A DNA stretch of 64,000 nucleotides from Bartonella sp. ML69XJBT (GTDB lineage: Bacteria; Pseudomonadota; Alphaproteobacteria; Rhizobiales; Rhizobiaceae), in contig NZ_JAQITB010000004.1 in the NCBI RefSeq assembly GCF_028618515.1, forward strand, positions 62,001 to 126,000, read 5' to 3'. Both the position numbers and the translations under genes were made by a program. The notes under the pieces were generated by a model, which ran no database searches, was not told where the DNA came from, and saw only the letters and a program-made list of their open reading frames with translations. Positions 33,218-43,795 of this stretch are shown in pieces. Within the stretch, counting starts at the first letter, position 1; each line of letters begins with the position of its first letter.

Positions 33218-34163
33218 GTCTTTCCCTATTTTTACAAGCAATCAAAAAAACACCACGGCGATTATTCCCAATAGCAATATTTCTGGACAAGCATTGGTTG
33301 CAGTGATTGCGATTATGACATTTCTCTCAAGCCTCACCTTAATCGGCGTTGATTTAGTCCAGCGTGCTGCGAACAGTTGGAGTAATCAAATCAGTTATGA
33401 AGCAACCATTCAAATACGCCCCATTGAAAATATTGATATCGAAAAAAACCTGCAAAATGCGGTTAAATTAGCTAAAACATTTTCTGGTGTAGAAGATGCC
33501 AAAATTGTTGACCAAACAGCTACTGAAAAATTGCTTGAACCGTGGCTTGGAACGAATTTAAGCATAAATGAATTGCCCCTTCCCCGTCTTATCATTGTGA
33601 CCTTGAAAGAGAATGAAGAAATTGATTTTCGTGCTATCAGTCAGGCAATCAAAACACAAATTCCAGGAGGTCAGTTTGATGATCACCGTGTTTGGGTCAG
33701 TCGTTTTGCAACCATGGCACACACCACTATTTTTATTGGTTTTGCGATTTTAATATTGGTTCTAGGCTCACTGATACTCACGGTTATCTTTGCCACACGC
33801 AATGCATTGGCGGAGAATGCACATATTATCAATGTATTATATTTTCTTGGCACGGAAACACTTTTCATTGCACGACAATTTGATTGGCATTTTTTTAAAA
33901 CTGCACTGCGTGGAGCATTATATGGTGGTATCACAAGCGCATTGCTGTTTACTGTCTTTGCCTTTTGGACAAACTATAATCTAGGGAGAGTGGAAGCCAG
34001 CCAAATAACCGCCTTGTTTGGACACCTTGCCATAAGTTCTCTTCCTTATGGAAAAATCATTGGTCTTATTCTTTTTGTTTCTTTTCTTACCATGTTGACA
34101 AACCGCATGACTATTCTTGCACAACTTAAAAAAATTGATCAATGCGAAAACGGTCTCTTTTAA
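33210..34163 (+). CDS. ftsX: Cell division protein FtsX
   Basis: Inner-membrane protein of 317 residues with the FtsX layout. A cytoplasmic lead is followed by a first helix at about 27-48 and a periplasmic domain of about 120 residues (SWSNQISYEATIQIR and on). Three helices lie in the C-terminal half (around 172-196, 226-250 and 275-295). It partners FtsE, and the overlapping frames imply coupled synthesis. Sequence conservation is low, as usual for FtsX. Confidence 0.9.
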   Translation: MNKSFPIFTSNQKNTTAIIPNSNISGQALVAVIAIMTFLSSLTLIGVDLVQRAANSWSNQISYEATIQIRPIENIDIEKNLQNAVKLAKTFSGVEDAKIVDQTATEKLLEPWLGTNLSINELPLPRLIIVTLKENEEIDFRAISQAIKTQIPGGQFDDHRVWVSRFATMAHTTIFIGFAILILVLGSLILTVIFATRNALAENAHIINVLYFLGTETLFIARQFDWHFFKTALRGALYGGITSALLFTVFAFWTNYNLGRVEASQITALFGHLAISSLPYGKIIGLILFVSFLTMLTNRMTILAQLKKIDQCENGLF

Positions 34164-34167
34164 TATT

Positions 34168-34836
34168 ATGATTCACGATTCCTATAATCCGAACTCACTG
34201 ATGCAAGACACCCCAGAGCTTTCTGTGAAAAAGCGTAACATAGGTAATCCATGGCGCCGCTTATTTCGCTATTTTCCACCGACAGCACTTATTCTTTTAA
34301 TCATTGTTCTGTTTTTCTGTATTGGTTTTATTATTTTTTCCGAAAAAACCGAGCGCCTTCAACCACCCCATCCTTTGCTAAAAGCAGATGCTATCATTGT
34401 TCTTACAGGAGGAGAAAAGCGAATAGAGACAGGGCTTAATCTCTTGCAAAAGGGGCGAGGTTCGCGGCTTTTGATCAGTGGCGTAAATACAACCACCAAT
34501 CTAAAGAGTTTCATGCATAGCACACACATTACACCCCAACTCTTTACCTGTTGTGTTGATATTGGCCACAAAGCCACAAATACCAAAGGGAATGCGGAAG
34601 AAAGCGCAGCTTGGATCAAAAAACACCACTATAAAACCCTTTATATTGTCACCCATGATTACCACATGTGGCGTTCAATGCGTGAACTTAAATATCTCAT
34701 GCCTGAGGTTCATTTTATTGCCTACCCTGTTAAAAAGAGCGGTGATGAAAGCATCATACAACAGATCAATCAAATCCGTATTCTTGCCTTTCAATATATC
34801 AAAACAATTCAAGTCTATATAAGAACTGCATTCTAA
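34168..34836 (+). CDS. DUF218 (YdcF/SanA-like) membrane protein
   Basis: Protein of 222 residues with one membrane segment near residues 35-58 (TALILLIIVLFFCIGFII) and a DUF218 domain. Motifs are ADAIIVLTGGEKRIETGL, then GNAEESAAWI and LYIVTHDYHMWRSM. The family is linked to envelope biogenesis and vancomycin sensitivity (SanA, ElyC); its reaction is unknown. ATG at 34168 lies 4 bp after the ftsX stop, so it belongs to the ftsEX operon, as in other Rhizobiales. The plsC-like acyltransferase gene often found next in relatives is not seen here. Confidence 0.82.
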   Translation: MIHDSYNPNSLMQDTPELSVKKRNIGNPWRRLFRYFPPTALILLIIVLFFCIGFIIFSEKTERLQPPHPLLKADAIIVLTGGEKRIETGLNLLQKGRGSRLLISGVNTTTNLKSFMHSTHITPQLFTCCVDIGHKATNTKGNAEESAAWIKKHHYKTLYIVTHDYHMWRSMRELKYLMPEVHFIAYPVKKSGDESIIQQINQIRILAFQYIKTIQVYIRTAF

Positions 34837-35580
34837 GTTTTACGTACTGTTTTTCTGCAAATCTTGATAAGCAACACCCTCACTATTGACCAACCCATCT
34901 TTCCCAACCCAAATGTCACAACAAGCCCTAAAGAGCATCCATAACAAGCGTTTTGTTATCTTCAATATCCAGATACAATCCCGCTTCTTAATTATTAATA
35001 TACAGAGGAAGAATTTTGATTCATTCTAAGAGGGCTTAAATTGACGTCCTCCCTACCCTAAAAGACAAAGATTGCCCCCCACTGGTTTGCAAACAATCCG
35101 GTTTCTTATTTCATAGGCTCTATCTGCTGACCACGTACACAATCCCCTCCATAAAACTAGGCAAACACGCCCTGCCCTCATGCAAAGCAGAACGCTCCAT
35201 GCATGATATCCCTTGAGAATAATACTCCTCAGACTGCTATAAAACCCATTTTACATTTTCATAAAAGCGCAAACCGCACTCTCAAACGATACCGCCTGTA
35301 ATGTTGCAATAGCTTATATCTGTGAAGAACATAAAAAGCATTTTGCGTCTTTCCTAAACCATAACACGCCAACTTCACTTGTGACATGCGAGGAAAGGAG
35401 AAACTCCTACGCATTGACCTAAGGCATCACCCCACACTCTCCCCAAAATTCTCATAGTGAAAATAGCACCACACCTCAAAGAACAGCGTTTTATGATGCT
35501 AACAACAAGGCTAAAAAATACCTCATATAAAGTTTTAGCAGCCCTCTATAACCATCCTCAACAATGGTGTTTTATCACTG
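34837..35580. other. Gene-poor stretch after the ftsEX operon
   Basis: No supported gene. Scattered minus-strand scraps resemble the integrase coding region (around 35060-35180, CGCCCTGCCCTCATGCAAAG) and its leader (35360-35400), too degraded for firm calling. Confidence 0.4.
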
Positions 35581-35584
35581 CCTC

Positions 35585-36130
35585 GACACTGCTTGATAAG
35601 ATATTGATTTATAATGATAATATAGCATCATTCATATGGAATTAAAGACCCGAATAACGTAAGATTTTCTCATTTCAAACCTGCTTATCTTGAATCAATC
35701 AAAATCATTCGCTTGCACATCAAAAGTGGGAATGAATGTGTGGATCAAATTTGTATAAGAAAGGACTAAAAATGGCTCTTATGAACCGTCTTAATGCAAG
35801 ATCTATCGCAACATTGAGAGCTGGCAAATATAATGATGGTGCTGGCTTGCTTCTTCATAAGCGTAAAGATGGAGGTGCTCAATGGATTTACCGTTATATC
35901 ATTCACAAACGTCGTCGTGAAATGGGCTTGGGTGCCCCTTAAGAGATGTCTCTTTAAAACAAGCCCGTGAATTGGCAACTGGGTGGCAGACTGTTTTACG
36001 TGAGTGTCGTGACCCCATTAAAGAACGCAATAAACAAAAGCGTGAGGTAATAAGCAATCTTCATTATTTAAAAGATATTACTTTAGAGACTTTTGAAAGT
36101 CGTAAAGCTGAATTAAAAAGTGATAGCAAA
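35585..36130 (+). pseudogene. Integrase 5'-end remnant, copy F (best preserved)
   Basis: 35585-35770 is the leader block (ATTGATTTATAATGATAATA, TTGAATCAATCAAAATCA, GCTTGCACATCA), then AAGGACT and ATG at 35772. The first 56 codons are intact (ATLRAGKYNDGAGLLLHKRK, WIYRYIIHKRRREMGLG) and match the DUF4102-like N-terminal arm of tyrosine integrases. A frameshift stops the frame at 35940. The next frame continues the domain (VLRECRDPIKERNKQKR, DITLETFESRKAEL). Homology ends just before the restriction gene stop. Confidence 0.88.
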
Positions 36131-36152
36131 GACGGAATCTGGTTTTCACCTT

Positions 36153-39100
36153 TTACGGCACAATAGATAACTTAACATTTTCAGTTTCTCGCACTTCCAA
36201 TTTTGGCAGACTGCGTACAATTTTCATAGTTTCTAAGCTTACCGTAATAACCCGTTGAAACAATTCCAAAGGATAGGCTGGATTACCAACTGTCTCAACA
36301 GCATAGCGATTGGCATCATTAACAATACCGCTCGCTTTATCCGTTTTGACAACCTGCCGCTCCATCACCCATTCAAGAGCAGGCCTACCGTTAACGATAT
36401 AATCATAAGCTTCAAGAGGAATATTATGCATCGTGATATGTGCATTATAAATCACACTACTTTTATCAATAGCACCGCGCTTACCTGCAAATTTCATCGC
36501 TTCAACACGGTAAAAACTCTCCGCATCAGAAATCATCCAAGTACTTGGATCACCCTGCTTATAGGTTACAGAATAGGGCTCAACCTCTTCATAATTCATA
36601 TGCAAAGCACCAAGCTTTCGCCCCGCTGACACAAAAGCCCAAAAATCCTCTACCTTTTTAACCGTTGGAATCCGTGGTAATTCTTTAGACAAGTTGTGTG
36701 CATAACGCACACGATAATCCTCAGAATGCAAAATTCCATAAACATAATAAAACAAATCATCCTTTGTAATCACTTCACCAGGATAGGCTGCTTTAAAATA
36801 TGCCAACCCTTCATCCGTGAGTGCATCACGCCGCTCTAAACCAACCTTTTTGCTTTCCTCTGCAAAATTTGCAAACAAATGAACCTGATCCTCTTCTTTA
36901 TCTTCTAAGAATTCAGTATTTTCATAAACATACCGTGGAAAACATTGGCCTTTCTCCATTGCATCAAGATTAGGCAAACTCTTAGTCATAAGAACAGAAA
37001 AACCACTGCTTGCTCCAACTCCTGTAACTTGTATAACACTATTTCCAAAAGCTTTTTCTAGTGGAAAGATACGCGGCATTTGGTAAATCATTTCATTAAA
37101 AGCGCGATTATAATAGAGCCACTGTCGTGTAAAAGGACGGTATGAACTCTGAGTAAGGTATGTCTCTTTAAGTTCAAAAACCTTTCCTCTAACTAACTGT
37201 TGTTTGAGGCCACGACTCCAACTGATCTTTTTGGCATCCGTGTTAACAAAATCGTCTACAGCACCTATACGTGTTTTACGATCATAATGCAGATACGCAG
37301 CATCAAAACGCTCTACTTCACCGTTATAAAAAGTAATCATATTGCTCATATTATTGGCTAGAGCTTCACGACTTGAATTATGTGCCCAAGCATCACGATT
37401 GGTTTTTATACCACAAGAAAAAGTTTTAAAGAGCTTTTTATTACTGCTCTTCTTGTCACCTAAGGCTAGAAATTTTTCAAAATCACTGTTGCGTTGATCC
37501 AACCAATCTCCATGCTCATCTGGTGTAATCATCTGCCAACTACGTGCACGCTTTATACCACCAACACTGCCCAATCGCTTAAGTTCAGAGAGTTTCTCTT
37601 TTGTTGTGAGATTATCCCCAATATCATAATAATAAATTTTACAAGACTTAGAAACATTTGGATTTTTAACAAACAGTGTCACAGCAATTCCTGTCATGCT
37701 TCCACTTCCAAAAACATTTTGCCCTTCTTGCGCACGCCCTTTACTCATCATATTTTTACGAATATCACCTCGCAAATTGAGAACATAAATATTTGAAAAC
37801 TCTTTACTTAATTCTTTTCGTAAACTATCCGCAGAATATCCATTGATAAAACCTGAATTTGTCACAAAACCAATAACACCGTAGTCTTTTATGCGATCAC
37901 TTGCCCAGCGAATAGCACGAATATAACTGTCATAAAGTCCATTAACATTGCTCGCTTTGGATTGAGCAGCATAAGTTTCACGAATACGACAATCCAATTT
38001 TGGATAGCCAATATTTTGTGCATTGTCATTTGCGCTTTTTTGTCCAGAAGAATAAGGGGGATTGCCAACAATAACACGAATATCTAGTTCTTTCTGGCGC
38101 GACCTGCGGGTGCTATTATCCACCAGCAAATCACTTATCAGATCTTTATCTTGCTCATAAAGCTGAAATGTATCGGTGAGACAAATTCCCTCAAACGGGA
38201 CATAATCGCCCCCCATCAGACCATGATAAGTCGTCTCAATATTAATAGCTGCAATATAATAGGCTAAAAGCACAATTTCATTGGCATGAATTTCATGACA
38301 AAATTTGTGTTTCATCTCCTCTGCTGTGATCAAACCCGATTGTAAAAGCCGCGTGATAAAAGTCCCTGTTCCTGTAAAGGGATCCATGATGTGAATACCA
38401 GGTGAGCCAAGTGTTTGGCCAAATTCAGCCTGTAAAACATCATTAACAGAGTGAAGAATAAAATCCACAATCTCAACGGGAGTATAAACAATGCCCAATT
38501 TTTCTACTGTGCGTGGAAAAGCATAACGGAAAAATTTATCGTAAAGCTCTATAATCAACCTCTGCTTTGCTGCTGGATCGGTAATGCCACTTGCTCGTAA
38601 TTTTACACTTGCGTAAAATTTCTCAAGATCTTTGGATTCCTTATCAAGATTTGCTTCATCAAGCACATCAAGCATACACTGCATAGCACGCGAGACAGGG
38701 TTCTCATGCGTAAATTGATAACCTTCAAACAACACCTGAAAAACAGGACGGGTGATGATATGCTGTGCCAGCATCTCAACCGCATCAGCCTCTGTGATGT
38801 TATCGTTTAAGTCATCACGCAATTCTGCTAAAAATCTGTTAAAGGCTTGACGCGCCTTAGTATCTGGTGCAGCGAGAATAGCTGTTAAGCGCGTGATATG
38901 ATTCTTAGCAATTTCCGCAATATTGCTCGCCCAATCTTCCCAATAATCACGCGTACCACATTTTTTGACGATCTTTGCCATGATGGCACGCGAAAGCTCA
39001 TCCACAGGAAAAGAAAGTTCCCCTTGACCTTGATCTGTAATAACACGATCACGCTCCGATGTTCCAATGCTCGAGTGTGCAGGTTGTGAGCGAACAGGAA

Positions 39101-41114
39101 GGTTGTCTACAACAGCCGTAACAGCCTTTAACTCAGTACTCTGAGTGACACCAATAATCTCAATCACATTGCTGATATCTTGCCCTAGAGATGCCTTATT
39201 AATTGTCGCATCAAAACGATCATCATGCGCACGCAAAGCATTTAAAATTTGCCAAACAACCCGATATTTTTCATTGTTATTCAAAGCTTGTTCCACTGGA
39301 ATCCCAGAGGGAATGCCTATTGGCAGAATAACATACCCCATCTTTTTACCCTCAGAGCGACGCATCACCCGTCCAACCGATTGGACAACATCAATCTGAC
39401 TCTTGCGTGGATTTAAAAACATGATAGCATCAAGAGCTGGAACATCGACCCCTTCAGACAAACAACGAGCATTGGTCAAAATACGACAAACATCATCCCC
39501 GCTCTCAGCTTTTAACCAATCAAGAAGAGCACCACGATCTTTGGCATTGAAAGTGCCATCAACATGTTCCACTTCACATTTCAAAAATGGCTCTTTTTCG
39601 ATGTTCTCTTTCGTATACTCAAGATACTCTTTAACAACCGCAGAAAATTCATCGCGAACTACTTTAGAACTTTGAATAGTTTTACAAAACGCCAAAGCAC
39701 GATGCATGGGATAGAGATCCGTGCCAATATCAGGCTTGATATCTTGTTTTGTCAGCGCCTTATAACAGCCGATAATTTTCGTGGCATCATCCAAAACAAG
39801 CTCAGACTTGTCATCACTAAGACGCTTTTGAACAGCGGAACTTACTAGTTTTTCATCCATTGCTAAAACAATAACCTTATAGTCCGTTAAAAGATTATTT
39901 TGTACAGCCCAAGAAAAACCCCGATAAAAAAGTGTTTTGCCAAACAGCTTTTCATCATCCATCGAAGCAAGAACGGCATTCACTTCATGTGCACGACTTT
40001 TTACATTATCACCAAAAATGCGTGGTGTCGCTGTCATATAAAGACGTTTCTTGGCACGAATAATATCGTTGGAATGCACCTTAACAAAATTGGATTCATC
40101 CTCTCCCACCAGCGTTGCACCTGTTGTACGGTGCGCCTCATCACAAATGATAAGATCAAATGTTGGGAAACCATAATTTTTCTGCGCATCAGAAACCACC
40201 TGAAGAGATTGATAGGTTGCAAACACCACGCTCATCTTATCTGCAACACTATTCTTTGCCTGTTCTGCAAGTTTTGCCGCATCGGTTGTCGCCGGAAAAG
40301 CAAGATCAAACACATCAATTTCAGCAACATCATGCGTATTTTTACGACGCTTTCCCACTTGTGTATCGGAACATACAGCAAAAGAACGTAAATCAATTTC
40401 AGCATCCGTTGTCCACTCACGCACCGTTTGTGACATCAGTGCCAAGGAAGGTACAAGAAACAAGACAAACTTGCCTTGACCGGCTAAATCCTCAGCAATC
40501 TTAAGACTGGTAAATGTCTTACCGGTACCACAAGCCATAATGAGCTTACCCCGATCTGCCTCAGCAAGCCCAGCACGCACAAAACGTAATGCTTCCAGCT
40601 GATGTGGACGGAGTTTCTTTTTATCTTCCAGGACAATTTTGCCTTTGGCTGCAAAAGTCTCCCAACGAATCGGACTTTGTTGCATATCGGAAAGACCAAT
40701 TCGTGTAACAGGAATATCCTGCCCCCGTATCATAGTTTCCGCATTTTCACTCCAAGCAGTTATTGTACTATCTATAACTACGCGCCGCTTAAATGGTTTT
40801 TTCCCTGATGCTGAAATAAAACTATCAATATCTGCTTTTTTAATCCGATAGGCTGCATCATAAAATTTACATTGGATTGCTGCAAAACCATCTTCATGAC
40901 GAAGCTTTGCCACAAGATCAATACCGGTATCACCACCATCCCAGCCATTTTCATGAGCCCAATCTTTAAAGGTCTGAACTTTTTCATACTGAACAGATTG
41001 GAGAGGATCATGTGTCAGATAAGCAAGAGCAAAACGCTCAAAATACGTCCCCTTATCTCGTTCGCTACGCGCTTCATCATGATATGTCTGTAAAAGCGAC
41101 TGTAGCGTTGTCAT
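36153..41114 (-). CDS. Single-chain (Type ISP-like) restriction-modification enzyme
   Basis: One polypeptide of 1653 residues combining all restriction and modification functions. Residues about 20-120 form an Mrr/PD-(D/E)xK-like nuclease (E26, D66, Q81-C-K83). Residues 165-600 are a superfamily 2 helicase/translocase: ACGTGKT at 194-200, DEAH at 325-328, TATPR at 361-365 and QSVGRVMR at 578-585. Residues about 860-1130 are a gamma-type N6-adenine methyltransferase with DPFTGTGTF at 911-919 and NPPY at 1018-1021. The remaining 500 residues are the likely target-recognition region. Size and order match the LlaGI type, which methylates one strand and cuts after translocation. No frameshift is seen and all catalytic motifs are present, so it looks active. 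Target sequence unknown. It abuts an integrase scar, suggesting gain by transfer. Confidence 0.9.
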   Translation of the reverse strand: MTTLQSLLQTYHDEARSERDKGTYFERFALAYLTHDPLQSVQYEKVQTFKDWAHENGWDGGDTGIDLVAKLRHEDGFAAIQCKFYDAAYRIKKADIDSFISASGKKPFKRRVVIDSTITAWSENAETMIRGQDIPVTRIGLSDMQQSPIRWETFAAKGKIVLEDKKKLRPHQLEALRFVRAGLAEADRGKLIMACGTGKTFTSLKIAEDLAGQGKFVLFLVPSLALMSQTVREWTTDAEIDLRSFAVCSDTQVGKRRKNTHDVAEIDVFDLAFPATTDAAKLAEQAKNSVADKMSVVFATYQSLQVVSDAQKNYGFPTFDLIICDEAHRTTGATLVGEDESNFVKVHSNDIIRAKKRLYMTATPRIFGDNVKSRAHEVNAVLASMDDEKLFGKTLFYRGFSWAVQNNLLTDYKVIVLAMDEKLVSSAVQKRLSDDKSELVLDDATKIIGCYKALTKQDIKPDIGTDLYPMHRALAFCKTIQSSKVVRDEFSAVVKEYLEYTKENIEKEPFLKCEVEHVDGTFNAKDRGALLDWLKAESGDDVCRILTNARCLSEGVDVPALDAIMFLNPRKSQIDVVQSVGRVMRRSEGKKMGYVILPIGIPSGIPVEQALNNNEKYRVVWQILNALRAHDDRFDATINKASLGQDISNVIEIIGVTQSTELKAVTAVVDNLPVRSQPAHSSIGTSERDRVITDQGQGELSFPVDELSRAIMAKIVKKCGTRDYWEDWASNIAEIAKNHITRLTAILAAPDTKARQAFNRFLAELRDDLNDNITEADAVEMLAQHIITRPVFQVLFEGYQFTHENPVSRAMQCMLDVLDEANLDKESKDLEKFYASVKLRASGITDPAAKQRLIIELYDKFFRYAFPRTVEKLGIVYTPVEIVDFILHSVNDVLQAEFGQTLGSPGIHIMDPFTGTGTFITRLLQSGLITAEEMKHKFCHEIHANEIVLLAYYIAAINIETTYHGLMGGDYVPFEGICLTDTFQLYEQDKDLISDLLVDNSTRRSRQKELDIRVIVGNPPYSSGQKSANDNAQNIGYPKLDCRIRETYAAQSKASNVNGLYDSYIRAIRWASDRIKDYGVIGFVTNSGFINGYSADSLRKELSKEFSNIYVLNLRGDIRKNMMSKGRAQEGQNVFGSGSMTGIAVTLFVKNPNVSKSCKIYYYDIGDNLTTKEKLSELKRLGSVGGIKRARSWQMITPDEHGDWLDQRNSDFEKFLALGDKKSSNKKLFKTFSCGIKTNRDAWAHNSSREALANNMSNMITFYNGEVERFDAAYLHYDRKTRIGAVDDFVNTDAKKISWSRGLKQQLVRGKVFELKETYLTQSSYRPFTRQWLYYNRAFNEMIYQMPRIFPLEKAFGNSVIQVTGVGASSGFSVLMTKSLPNLDAMEKGQCFPRYVYENTEFLEDKEEDQVHLFANFAEESKKVGLERRDALTDEGLAYFKAAYPGEVITKDDLFYYVYGILHSEDYRVRYAHNLSKELPRIPTVKKVEDFWAFVSAGRKLGALHMNYEEVEPYSVTYKQGDPSTWMISDAESFYRVEAMKFAGKRGAIDKSSVIYNAHITMHNIPLEAYDYIVNGRPALEWVMERQVVKTDKASGIVNDANRYAVETVGNPAYPLELFQRVITVSLETMKIVRSLPKLEVRETENVKLSIVP

Positions 41115-41809: not shown

Positions 41810-43795
41810 TTAATCACGTGAAAGAGCAACAACAGGATCAAGCCGTGAAGCTTGTCGTGCGGGCGAAAAGCCAAAACATATCCCAATGAGAGTTGAAAAA
41901 GTAAGAGATATGATAATTGAATCCATTGTATAAACCAAGTGGATAGGCGCCTTAAAGAGCAAAAACAAACCACCGATAGAAAGCCCAAAGAGGATTCCCA
42001 AACCACCGCCAATAACACAAACCAAAACTGCTTCAATGAGAAATTGCTGCAAAATATCACTTTGGCGCGCGCCCACTGCCATACGCACCCCAATTTCATT
42101 AATTCGCTCAGAAACAGTGACGAGCATAATATTCATCACTCCAATACCACCCACAATCAATGAGATAGCAGCAATAGAAGAGACTAAAAGCGTTAAGATA
42201 TGCGTACTTTCCATGATACGCTCACGAAAGAACTCTGAATTTCGAATGAAGAAATCTTCTCCACCATGGCGCATAGTAAGAAAGCGTTTTACCATCTTTT
42301 CTGCTAAATGTGAATCGACATTATCAGCAATTTTAATCGTAATTGCCCGAACTTGTGTCGTTCCAAGTAAACGCGTTTGCACGGTTGTATAAGGCAAATA
42401 CATCTGCAACGTACTTGAAATGCCTCCTCCCATATGTTGCGGATCGACCACCCCAACAATACGTACAGGAACACTTCCCACATGAACGACTTTTCCAATG
42501 GGACTCTCACGACTATGAGGAAAAAGTACAGCAACTGCTTCTTTTTCGATCACCAGATCCACAGCTCTCTCACGCACACTATTCCGATCAAACAATCTCC
42601 CTTGAACAGCTTTAAGTCCTTGTGTCTGAAAATATTGTTCTCCCACCCCAGCAATAACAGCATTGGCTTTAACGGCACCAGAACGTACAATAGAGCTTGT
42701 TGAAAGTTGAGGTGTTACACCAGCAACATAGGGTAATCCCGAAAAAGCTTCTGCATCTGCTTCCACCAAACTTGTTATTTTGTCTGCTTGTGGATCAGAG
42801 AGGCTTTTCCCCGGCAAAATAGTTAATGTACTGGAACCCAGACTTTTAAAATTGTCCATAATTTTTTCCCGCGTACCATTACCCAAAGCCACCATAGCAA
42901 TAATCGCGCCAATACCGATAATCACCCCGAGCATTGTCAAAAAAGTTCGCATTCGGTGGGCGTTCATTGCCAACAAGGCCATCACAAATGCCTCACGAAA
43001 CCGTTCAGCAAAAGAACGAAAAACCCCCATTGTTTTTTGCTCTTTTAGATTTTGTTTTTCCTGAAGAGATTGGGTATTTCTTTTTGTTTTCGCACCCTTT
43101 GACACATTGTCCGCAATAATTTCACCATCACTGAGTTCGATAATACGCTCTGCTCTTTCAGCTATCTGCATATCATGCGTTACGATGATAATGGTGCGTC
43201 CTTCTTGATGAAGCTCATCTAAAATACGCAACACTTCTTGACCACTCTGTTTATCTAATGCACCGGTTGGTTCATCAGCAAGAATGACCTCTGCATTATT
43301 CATCAGGGCACGAGCAATAGAGACACGTTGTTGTTGACCACCTGAGAGTTGATTGGGACGATGATTTATCCGATCTCCCATGCCTAAGCGTTTTAAAAGC
43401 TCCCCTGCACGTTTTTTTCTTAAACTTGGTGCACATCCTGCATAAATAGCTGGAATTTCAACATTGCCAAGCGCCGTTAATTCATTAAGCAGATGATAGC
43501 GCTGGAAAATAAATCCAAAATGATTGCGCCGCAAAGCGGACAATTCATCAGCAGAAAGGATAGCTGTTTCTTTTCCTGAAATCCAATAACGGCCAGAACT
43601 TGGTCGATCAAGACAACCCAAAATATTCATCAAGGTGGATTTTCCTGAACCCGAAGCGCCCACAATCGCCACCATTTCACCACGCTTAATGGTAAGATTG
43701 ATATCTTTCAAAATAGTAACAAATGTCTCACCGGTGGGAAACTCGCGCACAACATTTTCTAAAACGAGGACAGCTTCTGCTTGCTCTGCTTTCAT
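41810..43795 (-). CDS. macB: MacB-type ABC efflux transporter
   Basis: Fused ATPase-permease of 661 residues. Walker A GASGSGKST is at about 45-53, the signature LSGGQQQRVSIARAL at about 148-162 and Walker B ILADEPTGA after it. The MacB permease has one helix near 285, a large periplasmic domain (about 310-530) and three C-terminal helices, ending in the family segment FGFSPARQASRLDPV. MacB is a mechanotransmitting pump for macrolides, toxins or lipid-like substrates, working with MacA and an outer-membrane channel. Both partners are encoded just upstream. The actual substrate is unknown. Confidence 0.93.
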   Translation of the reverse strand: MKAEQAEAVLVLENVVREFPTGETFVTILKDINLTIKRGEMVAIVGASGSGKSTLMNILGCLDRPSSGRYWISGKETAILSADELSALRRNHFGFIFQRYHLLNELTALGNVEIPAIYAGCAPSLRKKRAGELLKRLGMGDRINHRPNQLSGGQQQRVSIARALMNNAEVILADEPTGALDKQSGQEVLRILDELHQEGRTIIIVTHDMQIAERAERIIELSDGEIIADNVSKGAKTKRNTQSLQEKQNLKEQKTMGVFRSFAERFREAFVMALLAMNAHRMRTFLTMLGVIIGIGAIIAMVALGNGTREKIMDNFKSLGSSTLTILPGKSLSDPQADKITSLVEADAEAFSGLPYVAGVTPQLSTSSIVRSGAVKANAVIAGVGEQYFQTQGLKAVQGRLFDRNSVRERAVDLVIEKEAVAVLFPHSRESPIGKVVHVGSVPVRIVGVVDPQHMGGGISSTLQMYLPYTTVQTRLLGTTQVRAITIKIADNVDSHLAEKMVKRFLTMRHGGEDFFIRNSEFFRERIMESTHILTLLVSSIAAISLIVGGIGVMNIMLVTVSERINEIGVRMAVGARQSDILQQFLIEAVLVCVIGGGLGILFGLSIGGLFLLFKAPIHLVYTMDSIIISLTFSTLIGICFGFSPARQASRLDPVVALSRD

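What the first reader, a model, noticed from the sequence alone, without database searches (positions are those of the whole stretch)
36153..41114. Intact Type ISP restriction-modification enzyme beside an integrase scar
Nuclease, helicase, methyltransferase and target-recognition domains are in one 1653-residue chain with all catalytic motifs visible. It abuts an integrase remnant. Single-chain systems of this size are uncommon in streamlined host-restricted bacteria, and this one could shape phage and gene-transfer-agent DNA uptake.
Basis: partly seen in the sequence, partly recalled or inferred. Interest (0 to 1): 0.6.

Follow-up and report, generated by a model that had tools for sequence, protein, structure and literature searches.

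The report
Bartonella DNA-cutting enzyme, reshuffled target reader
The gene encodes a known kind of all-in-one DNA-marking and DNA-cutting defence enzyme, but in Bartonella it belongs to an unusually large family whose target-reading parts appear to be swapped between copies, so almost every copy is predicted to recognise a different DNA word.

Summary
In detail: 36153-41114 (-) is an intact 1653-residue Type ISP restriction-modification enzyme with every domain in order, aligning to LlaBIII over residues 17-1643. The 'integrase scar' is background: the same 56-residue piece has 50 matches in this genome and here is a separate insertion. And such enzymes are not rare here: 55 of 71 genus genomes carry the C-terminal domain, up to 21 matches each; of 30 matching genomes elsewhere in the family none has more than 2.

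The gene sits at a fixed site (ydcF-macB) in 22 of 42 related genomes, 19 intact; most other copies read ride integrase-helicase islands. The target-reading residues differ in 19 of 19 orthologues, and the recognition domain is closer to island copies at fourfold-degenerate sites than the backbone is. Two copies in one closed genome are nearly identical except, sharply, for 30-40 codons holding one DNA-reading loop; no such clean swap was found at the fixed site. Best reading: a working restriction enzyme whose specificity is reassorted by recombination. Methylation and cutting are untested.

The parts
36153..41114 (-). Type ISP restriction-modification gene, 1653 aa
40647..41012 (-). Mrr-family nuclease domain (residues 35-156), PD-QXK type: D66, Q81, K83
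39357..40619 (-). SF2 translocase/ATPase (residues 166-586): GTGKT, DEAH, TATP, motif VI GRVMR
38574..38945 (-). ISP coupler domain (residues 724-847)
37794..38549 (-). N6-adenine methyltransferase (residues 856-1107): DPFTGTG, NPPY
36264..37436 (-). Type_ISP_C target-recognition / C-terminal region (residues 1227-1617)
36795..37874 (-). Diversified target-reading stretch (residues 1081-1440), loops III, IV, H, V and VI
35595..36152 (+). Inserted repeat with the N-terminal remnant of a tyrosine integrase (Arm-DNA-bind_3, split over two frames); not part of the enzyme system
34898..35594 (.). Older intergenic DNA between ydcF and the ISP gene, alignable to other Bartonella species
34117..34836 (+). 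ydcF-like gene, conserved neighbour on one side of the locus (name recalled, not searched)
41810..43795 (-). MacB-like ABC exporter gene, conserved neighbour on the other side (name recalled, not searched)

Best explanation
The gene encodes a working single-chain Type ISP restriction-modification enzyme. By analogy with LlaGI and LlaBIII it methylates one adenine of a short asymmetric site; on unmethylated DNA it translocates with ATP and cuts when two head-to-head enzymes collide. It lives at a fixed chromosomal site (ydcF-macB) that one Bartonella lineage has kept in some species and broken or lost in others. Its scaffold (nuclease, motor, coupler, methylase core) is conserved, while its DNA-reading region has been diversified, partly by recombination with a pool of related recognition domains found across the genus, mostly in mobile-island copies. 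Each species, and nearly each copy in a genome, is therefore predicted to mark and police a different DNA word. Shown: identity, intactness, purifying selection, locus, amplification, mosaic signal in the recognition region, and two clean block replacements between island paralogues. Inferred: activity; the donor and direction of exchange for the fixed-site gene; that replaced loops change the recognised base; and that the result is a barrier to phage or gene-transfer-agent DNA.
For: Domains and templates. dN/dS 0.06-0.24 in seven stretches of 19 orthologues; catalytic residues kept in 19 of 19. Locus occupied in 22 of 71 genomes, all among the 42 with macB at 85% identity or more: 21 by coordinates plus G028 on a contig end. 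At 16 mapped target-reading columns mean pairwise identity among orthologues is 0.514, against 0.775 in residues 1011-1470 and 0.859 overall; 0 of 10,000 random column sets as low. Profiles: 19 distinct of 19 orthologues, 50 of 52 island copies; 21 of 21 in closed genome G027, 10 of 11 read in G066, 6 of 7 read in G055. Orthologue-to-island identity at fourfold-degenerate sites: 0.54 in the TRD against 0.33-0.43 in nuclease, ATPase, coupler and methylase core, 0.40-0.48 in 1011-1225 and 0.40 at the C-terminus. PHI p=0.001 for residues 1011-1470 of the orthologues. L184 and L190 (same genome, G027): 97-100% in every window sampled up to codon 1110, 58-73% at 1111-1140, 90% at 1141-1150, 100% again to about 1480, then 87-98%; the L184 segment is 93% identical to L183 of that genome, whose first 1000 codons are only 71.5% alike. 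L133 and L135 (both G055): 100% to codon 1280, then helix H and loops V and VI differ, then 97-100% from about 1521.
Against: No methylation or cleavage data. For the fixed-site gene no clean swap was found: in every 40-codon window the best DNA match of at least 16 of 19 orthologues is another orthologue, not an island copy, and no pair of orthologues met the looser swap scan. Orthologue-to-orthologue fourfold identity shows no special dip in the TRD (0.686; range 0.64-0.73), and orthologue-to-island protein identity is as high in the methylase (64.5%) and C-terminus (68.1%) as in the TRD (63.8%). On the TRD tree the orthologues are not one clade, but the AU test does not reject holding them together (p=0.075); the split 'islands apart' is rejected only weakly (p=0.026); the backbone rejects neither alternative. 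PHI is also significant in residues 1-640 of the orthologues and in all four stretches of 60 island copies, so recombination is not confined to the TRD. Clean swaps are few: 3 cases in all pairs of 72 island copies, one of them a chimera over residues 321-1520, plus one in a looser scan (L155/L156, different genomes). In 13 of 21 loop pairs the loop types are associated at p<0.05, so assortment is only partly free. The mapping of specificity residues rests on distant homologues.
Confidence: 0.75

Rival explanations
1. Ordinary Type ISP enzyme whose target-recognition domain simply evolves fast by point mutation under diversifying or relaxed selection, without exchange between loci.
For: TRD has the highest dN/dS (0.237) among orthologues; the AU test does not reject a single orthologue clade in the TRD (p=0.075); best DNA matches of orthologues are mostly other orthologues even in the TRD; no clean swap among orthologues.
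Against: Point mutation would not make orthologue-to-island identity at fourfold sites highest in the TRD (0.54 against 0.33-0.48 elsewhere), give a PHI signal in 1011-1470, or put a block of 30-40 codons at 58-73% identity inside otherwise near-identical island copies with a 93% match to a third copy.
Confidence: 0.17
2. Selfish or addictive mobile cargo: the copies persist because islands carrying them spread and losing the enzyme's methylation is harmful, not because they defend the host.
For: 48 of 59 island loci of 17 kb or more have integrase and DUF3987 helicase upstream on the same strand; one copy is on B. tribocorum plasmid NC_010160.1; a relative with a backbone near the fixed-site genes (L119, G048, about 74% in nuclease and ATPase) still lies in such an island.
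Against: The fixed-site gene has only an integrase remnant beside it and is intact in 19 species, while 3 further genomes carry it interrupted and 3 of 14 vacant sites read hold decayed remnants, so loss is survivable.
Confidence: 0.35
3. The enzyme is now mainly a methyltransferase used for gene regulation, with restriction decaying.
For: 3 of 72 island copies have lost the nuclease Q and K.
Against: Nuclease residues intact in 19 of 19 orthologues and nuclease dN/dS 0.21.
Confidence: 0.08
4. The gene was brought to this spot recently by the neighbouring integrase.
For: Integrase remnant lies directly beside the gene and its first residues match the start of the island integrases.
Against: Opposite orientation to the island arrangement; the remnant is an insertion between the gene and older intergenic DNA; 50 such matches in the genome; orthologues at the same site across the lineage.
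Confidence: 0.03

Closest known systems
LlaBIII (PDB 4xqk) and LlaGI (PDB 5ffj), Type ISP prototypes
   Same: Same single-chain order of nuclease, SF2 motor, coupler, N6-adenine methyltransferase and TRD; LlaBIII alignable over residues 17-1643
   Different: Distant (identity not computed); several target-reading residues differ
Type ISP enzymes of Mesorhizobium sp. Z1-4, Nitratireductor sp. B36 and plasmids of Sulfitobacter and Phaeobacter
   Same: 67-71% identical full length, among the closest found outside the genus
   Different: In a mean over 8 enzymes of other genera the coupler is 82% but the TRD only 40% alike
Island- and plasmid-borne Type ISP enzymes of Bartonella, e.g. B. tribocorum plasmid NC_010160.1
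   Same: Related TRDs (mean 64%, against 40% for other genera)
   Different: More distant nuclease and coupler (53%); most lie in integrase-helicase islands
TRD exchange (domain movement) in Helicobacter pylori Type I and III systems (PMC3983042, passages seen)
   Same: Specificity changed by moving recognition sequence between genes
   Different: There whole TRDs move; here the unit can be one loop of 30-40 codons inside a single-chain enzyme
Type IIG enzyme 7lo5 (that this entry is DrdV is recalled; DrdV recognises CATGNAC, passage of PMC10201449)
   Same: Methyltransferase-TRD part aligns, including the NEM-YQMP and LD--EK-QC loops
   Different: 1029 residues; best stretch covers only residues 754-1398, with no match to the motor domain

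Membership tests
Type ISP restriction-modification | Single chain: Mrr nuclease, SF2 helicase-like ATPase, coupler, methyltransferase, TRD in that order | tested here: met
   definition in abstract of PMC4666363 (listing) and passage of PMC3874165
Type ISP restriction-modification | PD-QXK-type nuclease motif | tested here: met
   D66, Q81, K83 in 19 of 19 orthologues
Type ISP restriction-modification | SF2 motifs and adenine methylase motifs (DPFTGTG, NPPY) | tested here: met
Type ISP restriction-modification | Full-length similarity to LlaGI/LlaBIII | tested here: met
Type ISP restriction-modification | Adenine methylation of an asymmetric site | not testable with these tools
   no methylation data
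Type ISP restriction-modification | ATP-driven translocation and cutting between head-to-head sites | not testable with these tools
   needs protein
Integrase-borne ISP island | Integrase and helicase genes upstream and in line with the ISP gene | tested here: not met
   window gene has only a convergent integrase remnant downstream; 48 of 59 island loci have integrase and helicase in line

The most novel reading that the evidence does not exclude
Bartonella runs a genus-wide combinatorial specificity system: a mobile, amplified Type ISP family (21 full-length copies with 21 different target-reader profiles in one closed genome) plus fixed-site copies, which trade single DNA-reading loops as cassettes so that separate base positions of the target are reassorted semi-independently, giving each species its own set of methylation words and a shifting barrier to phage and gene-transfer-agent DNA.
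Probability: 0.4. Interest if true: 0.8.

Novelty: new member of a known kind. Interest (0 to 1): 0.55.

Why it matters
If the loop cassettes behave as the sequences suggest, nature has done what the authors of PMC4872093 call an unaccomplished challenge (abstract): giving a restriction enzyme a new target, here by swapping one loop while methylation and cutting change together. Pairs such as L184/L190 would be near-isogenic test cases for the partial recognition code of that paper. It would also supply a mechanism for species-level barriers to gene-transfer-agent DNA in Bartonella, which a 2019 review names as still to be clarified (PMC6899734, passage seen). My searches of the held open-access library found 0 papers with both 'Bartonella' and 'Type ISP'; in a search for methylome terms none of the 20 papers listed, of 524 found, mentions Bartonella. 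Subscription papers are mostly not held.

Tried and rejected
Recent capture by the neighbouring integrase: rejected. Rarity in the genus: rejected. Distinct residue profiles alone as proof of diversification: dropped, because 14 of 14 out-of-genus enzymes are distinct too; replaced by comparing identity at the reading columns with random column sets, for which I used 16 of the 19 columns (left out: LlaGI 1024, 1119 and the column after 1373). Raised dS in the TRD as a sign of import: dropped, since dS is 0.63 there but also 0.53-0.57 in coupler, methylase and C-terminus. Tree incongruence gave only weak support. Promoter scan upstream of the gene: no more sites than shuffles (3 against mean 2.5, sd 1.8), uninformative. 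The LlaGI nuclease-motif paper is not held; the terms sought for LlaBIII mutants were not found in PMC7049714. Predicted target by the code in PMC4872093 section 18: position -1 not read (I1118, N1133), +1 T:A, +2 any, +4 G:C favoured by K1237 but N1239 is the A:T signal, +5 unclear, +6 G:C by R1301; +3 perhaps C by likeness to the loop of 7lo5; so roughly 5'-TN(C)GNG-3', low confidence, untested. No structure prediction was run, since solved templates exist.

Full report
What is there. The minus-strand frame 36153-41114 is intact from ATG to TAA, 1653 residues. Pfam finds the complete Type ISP series above its cut-offs: Mrr_cat_2, ResIII with Helicase_C, ISP_coupler, N6_Mtase/Eco57I, Type_ISP_C. 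PADLOC's best model matches 1-1645 at 2217 bits under the label Type IIG, its second, labelled Type I restriction enzyme-methyltransferase, at 1397 bits. The solved Type ISP structures LlaBIII and LlaGI match at 1213 and 1179 bits. The B. tribocorum plasmid relative is annotated 'type ISP restriction/modification enzyme' in the PLSDB gene table. The identity is therefore established and not new.

Is it maintained? Among 19 intact orthologues at the same site, dN/dS is 0.21 for the nuclease, 0.13 ATPase, 0.08 coupler, 0.06 methylase core, 0.215 methylase C-part, 0.237 TRD and 0.11 C-terminus; residues 641-723 were not tested. Twelve catalytic residues of nuclease, motor and methylase are invariant in 19 of 19. 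Both restriction and modification parts are under purifying selection.

The locus. In the genus search 58 of 71 genomes have a relative. Measuring the ftsX-macB gap in all 71 genomes puts an ISP gene there in 21; G028 is added because its gene lies next to ydcF and ftsX (L038) while macB is on another contig. All 22 are among the 42 genomes with macB at 85% identity or more. 19 are full length; G020, G026 and G068 are interrupted, and since G020 and G068 are drafts, sequencing error is possible there. Of the 20 vacant genomes in that lineage I read 14, and 3 (G022, G024, G035) hold decayed ISP pieces while 11 gave no match at E 1e-3; 6 were not read. The nearest relative by flanking genes, G052 (97% in macB and ftsX), is vacant. 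Three further genomes (G012, G029, G041) carry a 76-79% relative at another place, with the same neighbouring gene families in all three.

The integrase scar. Two open pieces cover the two halves of Arm-DNA-bind_3 in different frames, each below Pfam's cut-off. Intergenic DNA 34898-35594 aligns to the ydcF-ISP gap of other species, and in L083 and in L096 (same species as L028) that homology ends against the ISP gene, so 35595-36152 is an insert; shorter remains of the same repeat sit at this spot in several other species. The 56-residue first piece has 50 matches in the draft genome, four of them in this window; 5 of the 50 lie in open frames of 380 residues or more. The scar says nothing special about the gene.

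Amplification. With the Pfam model Type_ISP_C, 55 of 71 genus genomes have 241 matches; 31 genomes have 3 or more, 14 have 7 or more, and the most is 21 (tallied). The model also hits shorter proteins and fragments. In 247 genomes drawn from the family, 33 match, 3 of them this genus; none of the other 30 has more than 2. In nine genomes searched in full, G027 (one contig, 2.7 Mb) has 22 matches, 21 of them full length, and all 21 keep the catalytic residues. Of 59 island loci of at least 17 kb, 49 have the integrase, 52 the DUF3987 helicase and 37 the Toprim primase upstream on the same strand, 48 both integrase and helicase; 43 have beta-solenoid genes downstream. The island copies studied (72, of which 70 have distinct methylase-TRD sequences) were chosen by me from full-length matches, not at random; the label 'island' covers all copies outside the two fixed sites, and 11 of the 59 lack integrase, helicase or both.

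Mosaic signal in the specificity region. Mean identity among orthologues: nuclease 85.8, ATPase 89.6, linker 79.8, coupler 92.1, methylase 86.4, TRD 74.6, C-terminus 88.6. Orthologues against 52 island copies: 52.8, 61.1, 31.1, 52.7, 64.5, 63.8, 68.1. Orthologues against 8 enzymes of other genera: 71.5, 78.5, 62.9, 82.4, 64.2, 39.9, 69.1. So towards other genera the TRD falls far below the backbone, but towards island copies it does not. Identity at fourfold-degenerate sites between orthologues and island copies is 0.33, 0.37, 0.37, 0.43 in nuclease, ATPase, coupler and methylase core, 0.48 in 1011-1100, 0.40 in 1101-1225, 0.54 in the TRD and 0.40 at the C-terminus; among orthologues it is 0.64-0.73 with no special dip in the TRD (0.69). 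PHI is significant for 1011-1470 and 1-640 of the orthologues and not for 641-1010 or 1471-1640; in 60 island copies (12 of 72 left out as distant) it is significant in all four stretches. Against a recent island origin of the fixed-site TRDs: in no 40-codon window do more than 3 of 19 orthologues have an island copy as best DNA match. Trees on 59-61 rows (every third island copy) make the orthologues one clade in the backbone and not in the TRD, but the AU test does not reject the clade there (p=0.075). Exchange with the fixed-site gene is thus supported but old or from unsampled donors.

Target-reading residues. I placed the six loops and helix H of LlaGI/LlaBIII (PMC4872093, sections 16 and 18 read, other passages seen) on the sequence through the PDB alignments. 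All 19 orthologues differ at 19 such columns, 3 of 3 at the second site differ, and 52 island copies give 50 profiles. Loop types recur across lineages: for loop III, 19 of 19 orthologues have a type also seen in island copies, for loop VI 15 of 19, for loop IV 10 of 19. In 70 island copies loop III is not associated with loops II, IV, H, V or VI (p 0.11-0.47), nor V with VI (p=0.18), while H and V are tightly linked (0 of 500 shuffles); in all, 13 of 21 loop pairs are associated at p<0.05. Assortment is partial, freest for loop III.

Direct swaps. A strict scan of all pairs of 72 island copies gave three cases. L184 and L190, both in G027, are 97-100% in the windows sampled to codon 1110, 58-73% at 1111-1140, 90% at 1141-1150, 100% to about 1480, then 87-98%. 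The block is loop III, which reads position -1 in LlaGI; one copy has the Q/K type (K tied to C:G at -1 in PMC4872093), the other A/G. The L184 segment is 93% identical to L183 of the same genome, whose first 1000 codons are only 71.5% alike; L190 shares its loop type with L191, which is 99.2% identical to it over the first 1000 codons, so L184 looks like the changed copy. L133 and L135, both in G055, are 100% identical to codon 1280, differ across helix H, V and VI, then converge; no close donor was found for either (best 80-82%). The third case is a chimera over 321-1520 and is not counted as a loop swap. A looser scan that included the orthologues reported only one pair, of island copies from two genomes (L155/L156), and no orthologue pair. 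I cannot exclude assembly error in these repeats.

Mechanism and novelty. Action by methylation, translocation and collision is inferred from the prototypes. That loop swaps change the recognised base is inferred from the LlaGI code. The gene itself is a new member of a known kind. Genus-wide amplification with loop-sized exchange did not appear for Type ISP enzymes in the listings of my ten paper searches, which cover open-access papers only; exchange of whole TRDs in other restriction types is known (PMC3983042, passages seen).

Noticed in passing
L105-L113, L115, L180-L199 and other island loci: Many Type ISP genes ride a recurrent island: tyrosine integrase, Toprim primase, DUF3987 helicase, ISP, then an array of beta-solenoid (YdcK/hexapeptide-like) proteins with the motif KKYELTNETR. 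It resembles a phage satellite; capsid genes were not searched for.
   Followed up: partly
G000, 50 places (window 4295, 8476, 22432, 35772 among them): N-terminal integrase fragments are a dispersed repeat in this draft genome; 5 of 50 matches lie in open frames of 380 residues or more.
   Followed up: partly
L116, L117, L118: A second chromosomal site holds an ISP gene (76-79% to the window gene) in three genomes, with the same neighbours and no integrase or helicase family member among the ORFs called: perhaps an independent settling of the same enzyme family.
   Followed up: partly
L161, L162 (G026:C1:1846818-1864968): In G026 the orthologue is split near residue 500 and its two parts lie about 13 kb apart in opposite orientation, with macB turned round too: it looks like an inversion through the gene.
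   Followed up: no
L114 (G066:C1), length and ISP position as in NC_010160.1: The 23 kb B. tribocorum plasmid carries an ISP gene with primase, helicase and beta-solenoid genes but no integrase in the 17 kb read.
   Followed up: no
L104:3776-6403: 875-residue protein with four DUF6990 matches between an array of short repeated proteins and an ISP gene cut by the contig end; unknown function.
   Followed up: no
L073 and L081, residues 161-640: The window gene and its nearest relative are 99% identical in the ATPase but 85% in the nuclease: recent exchange outside the TRD as well.
   Followed up: no
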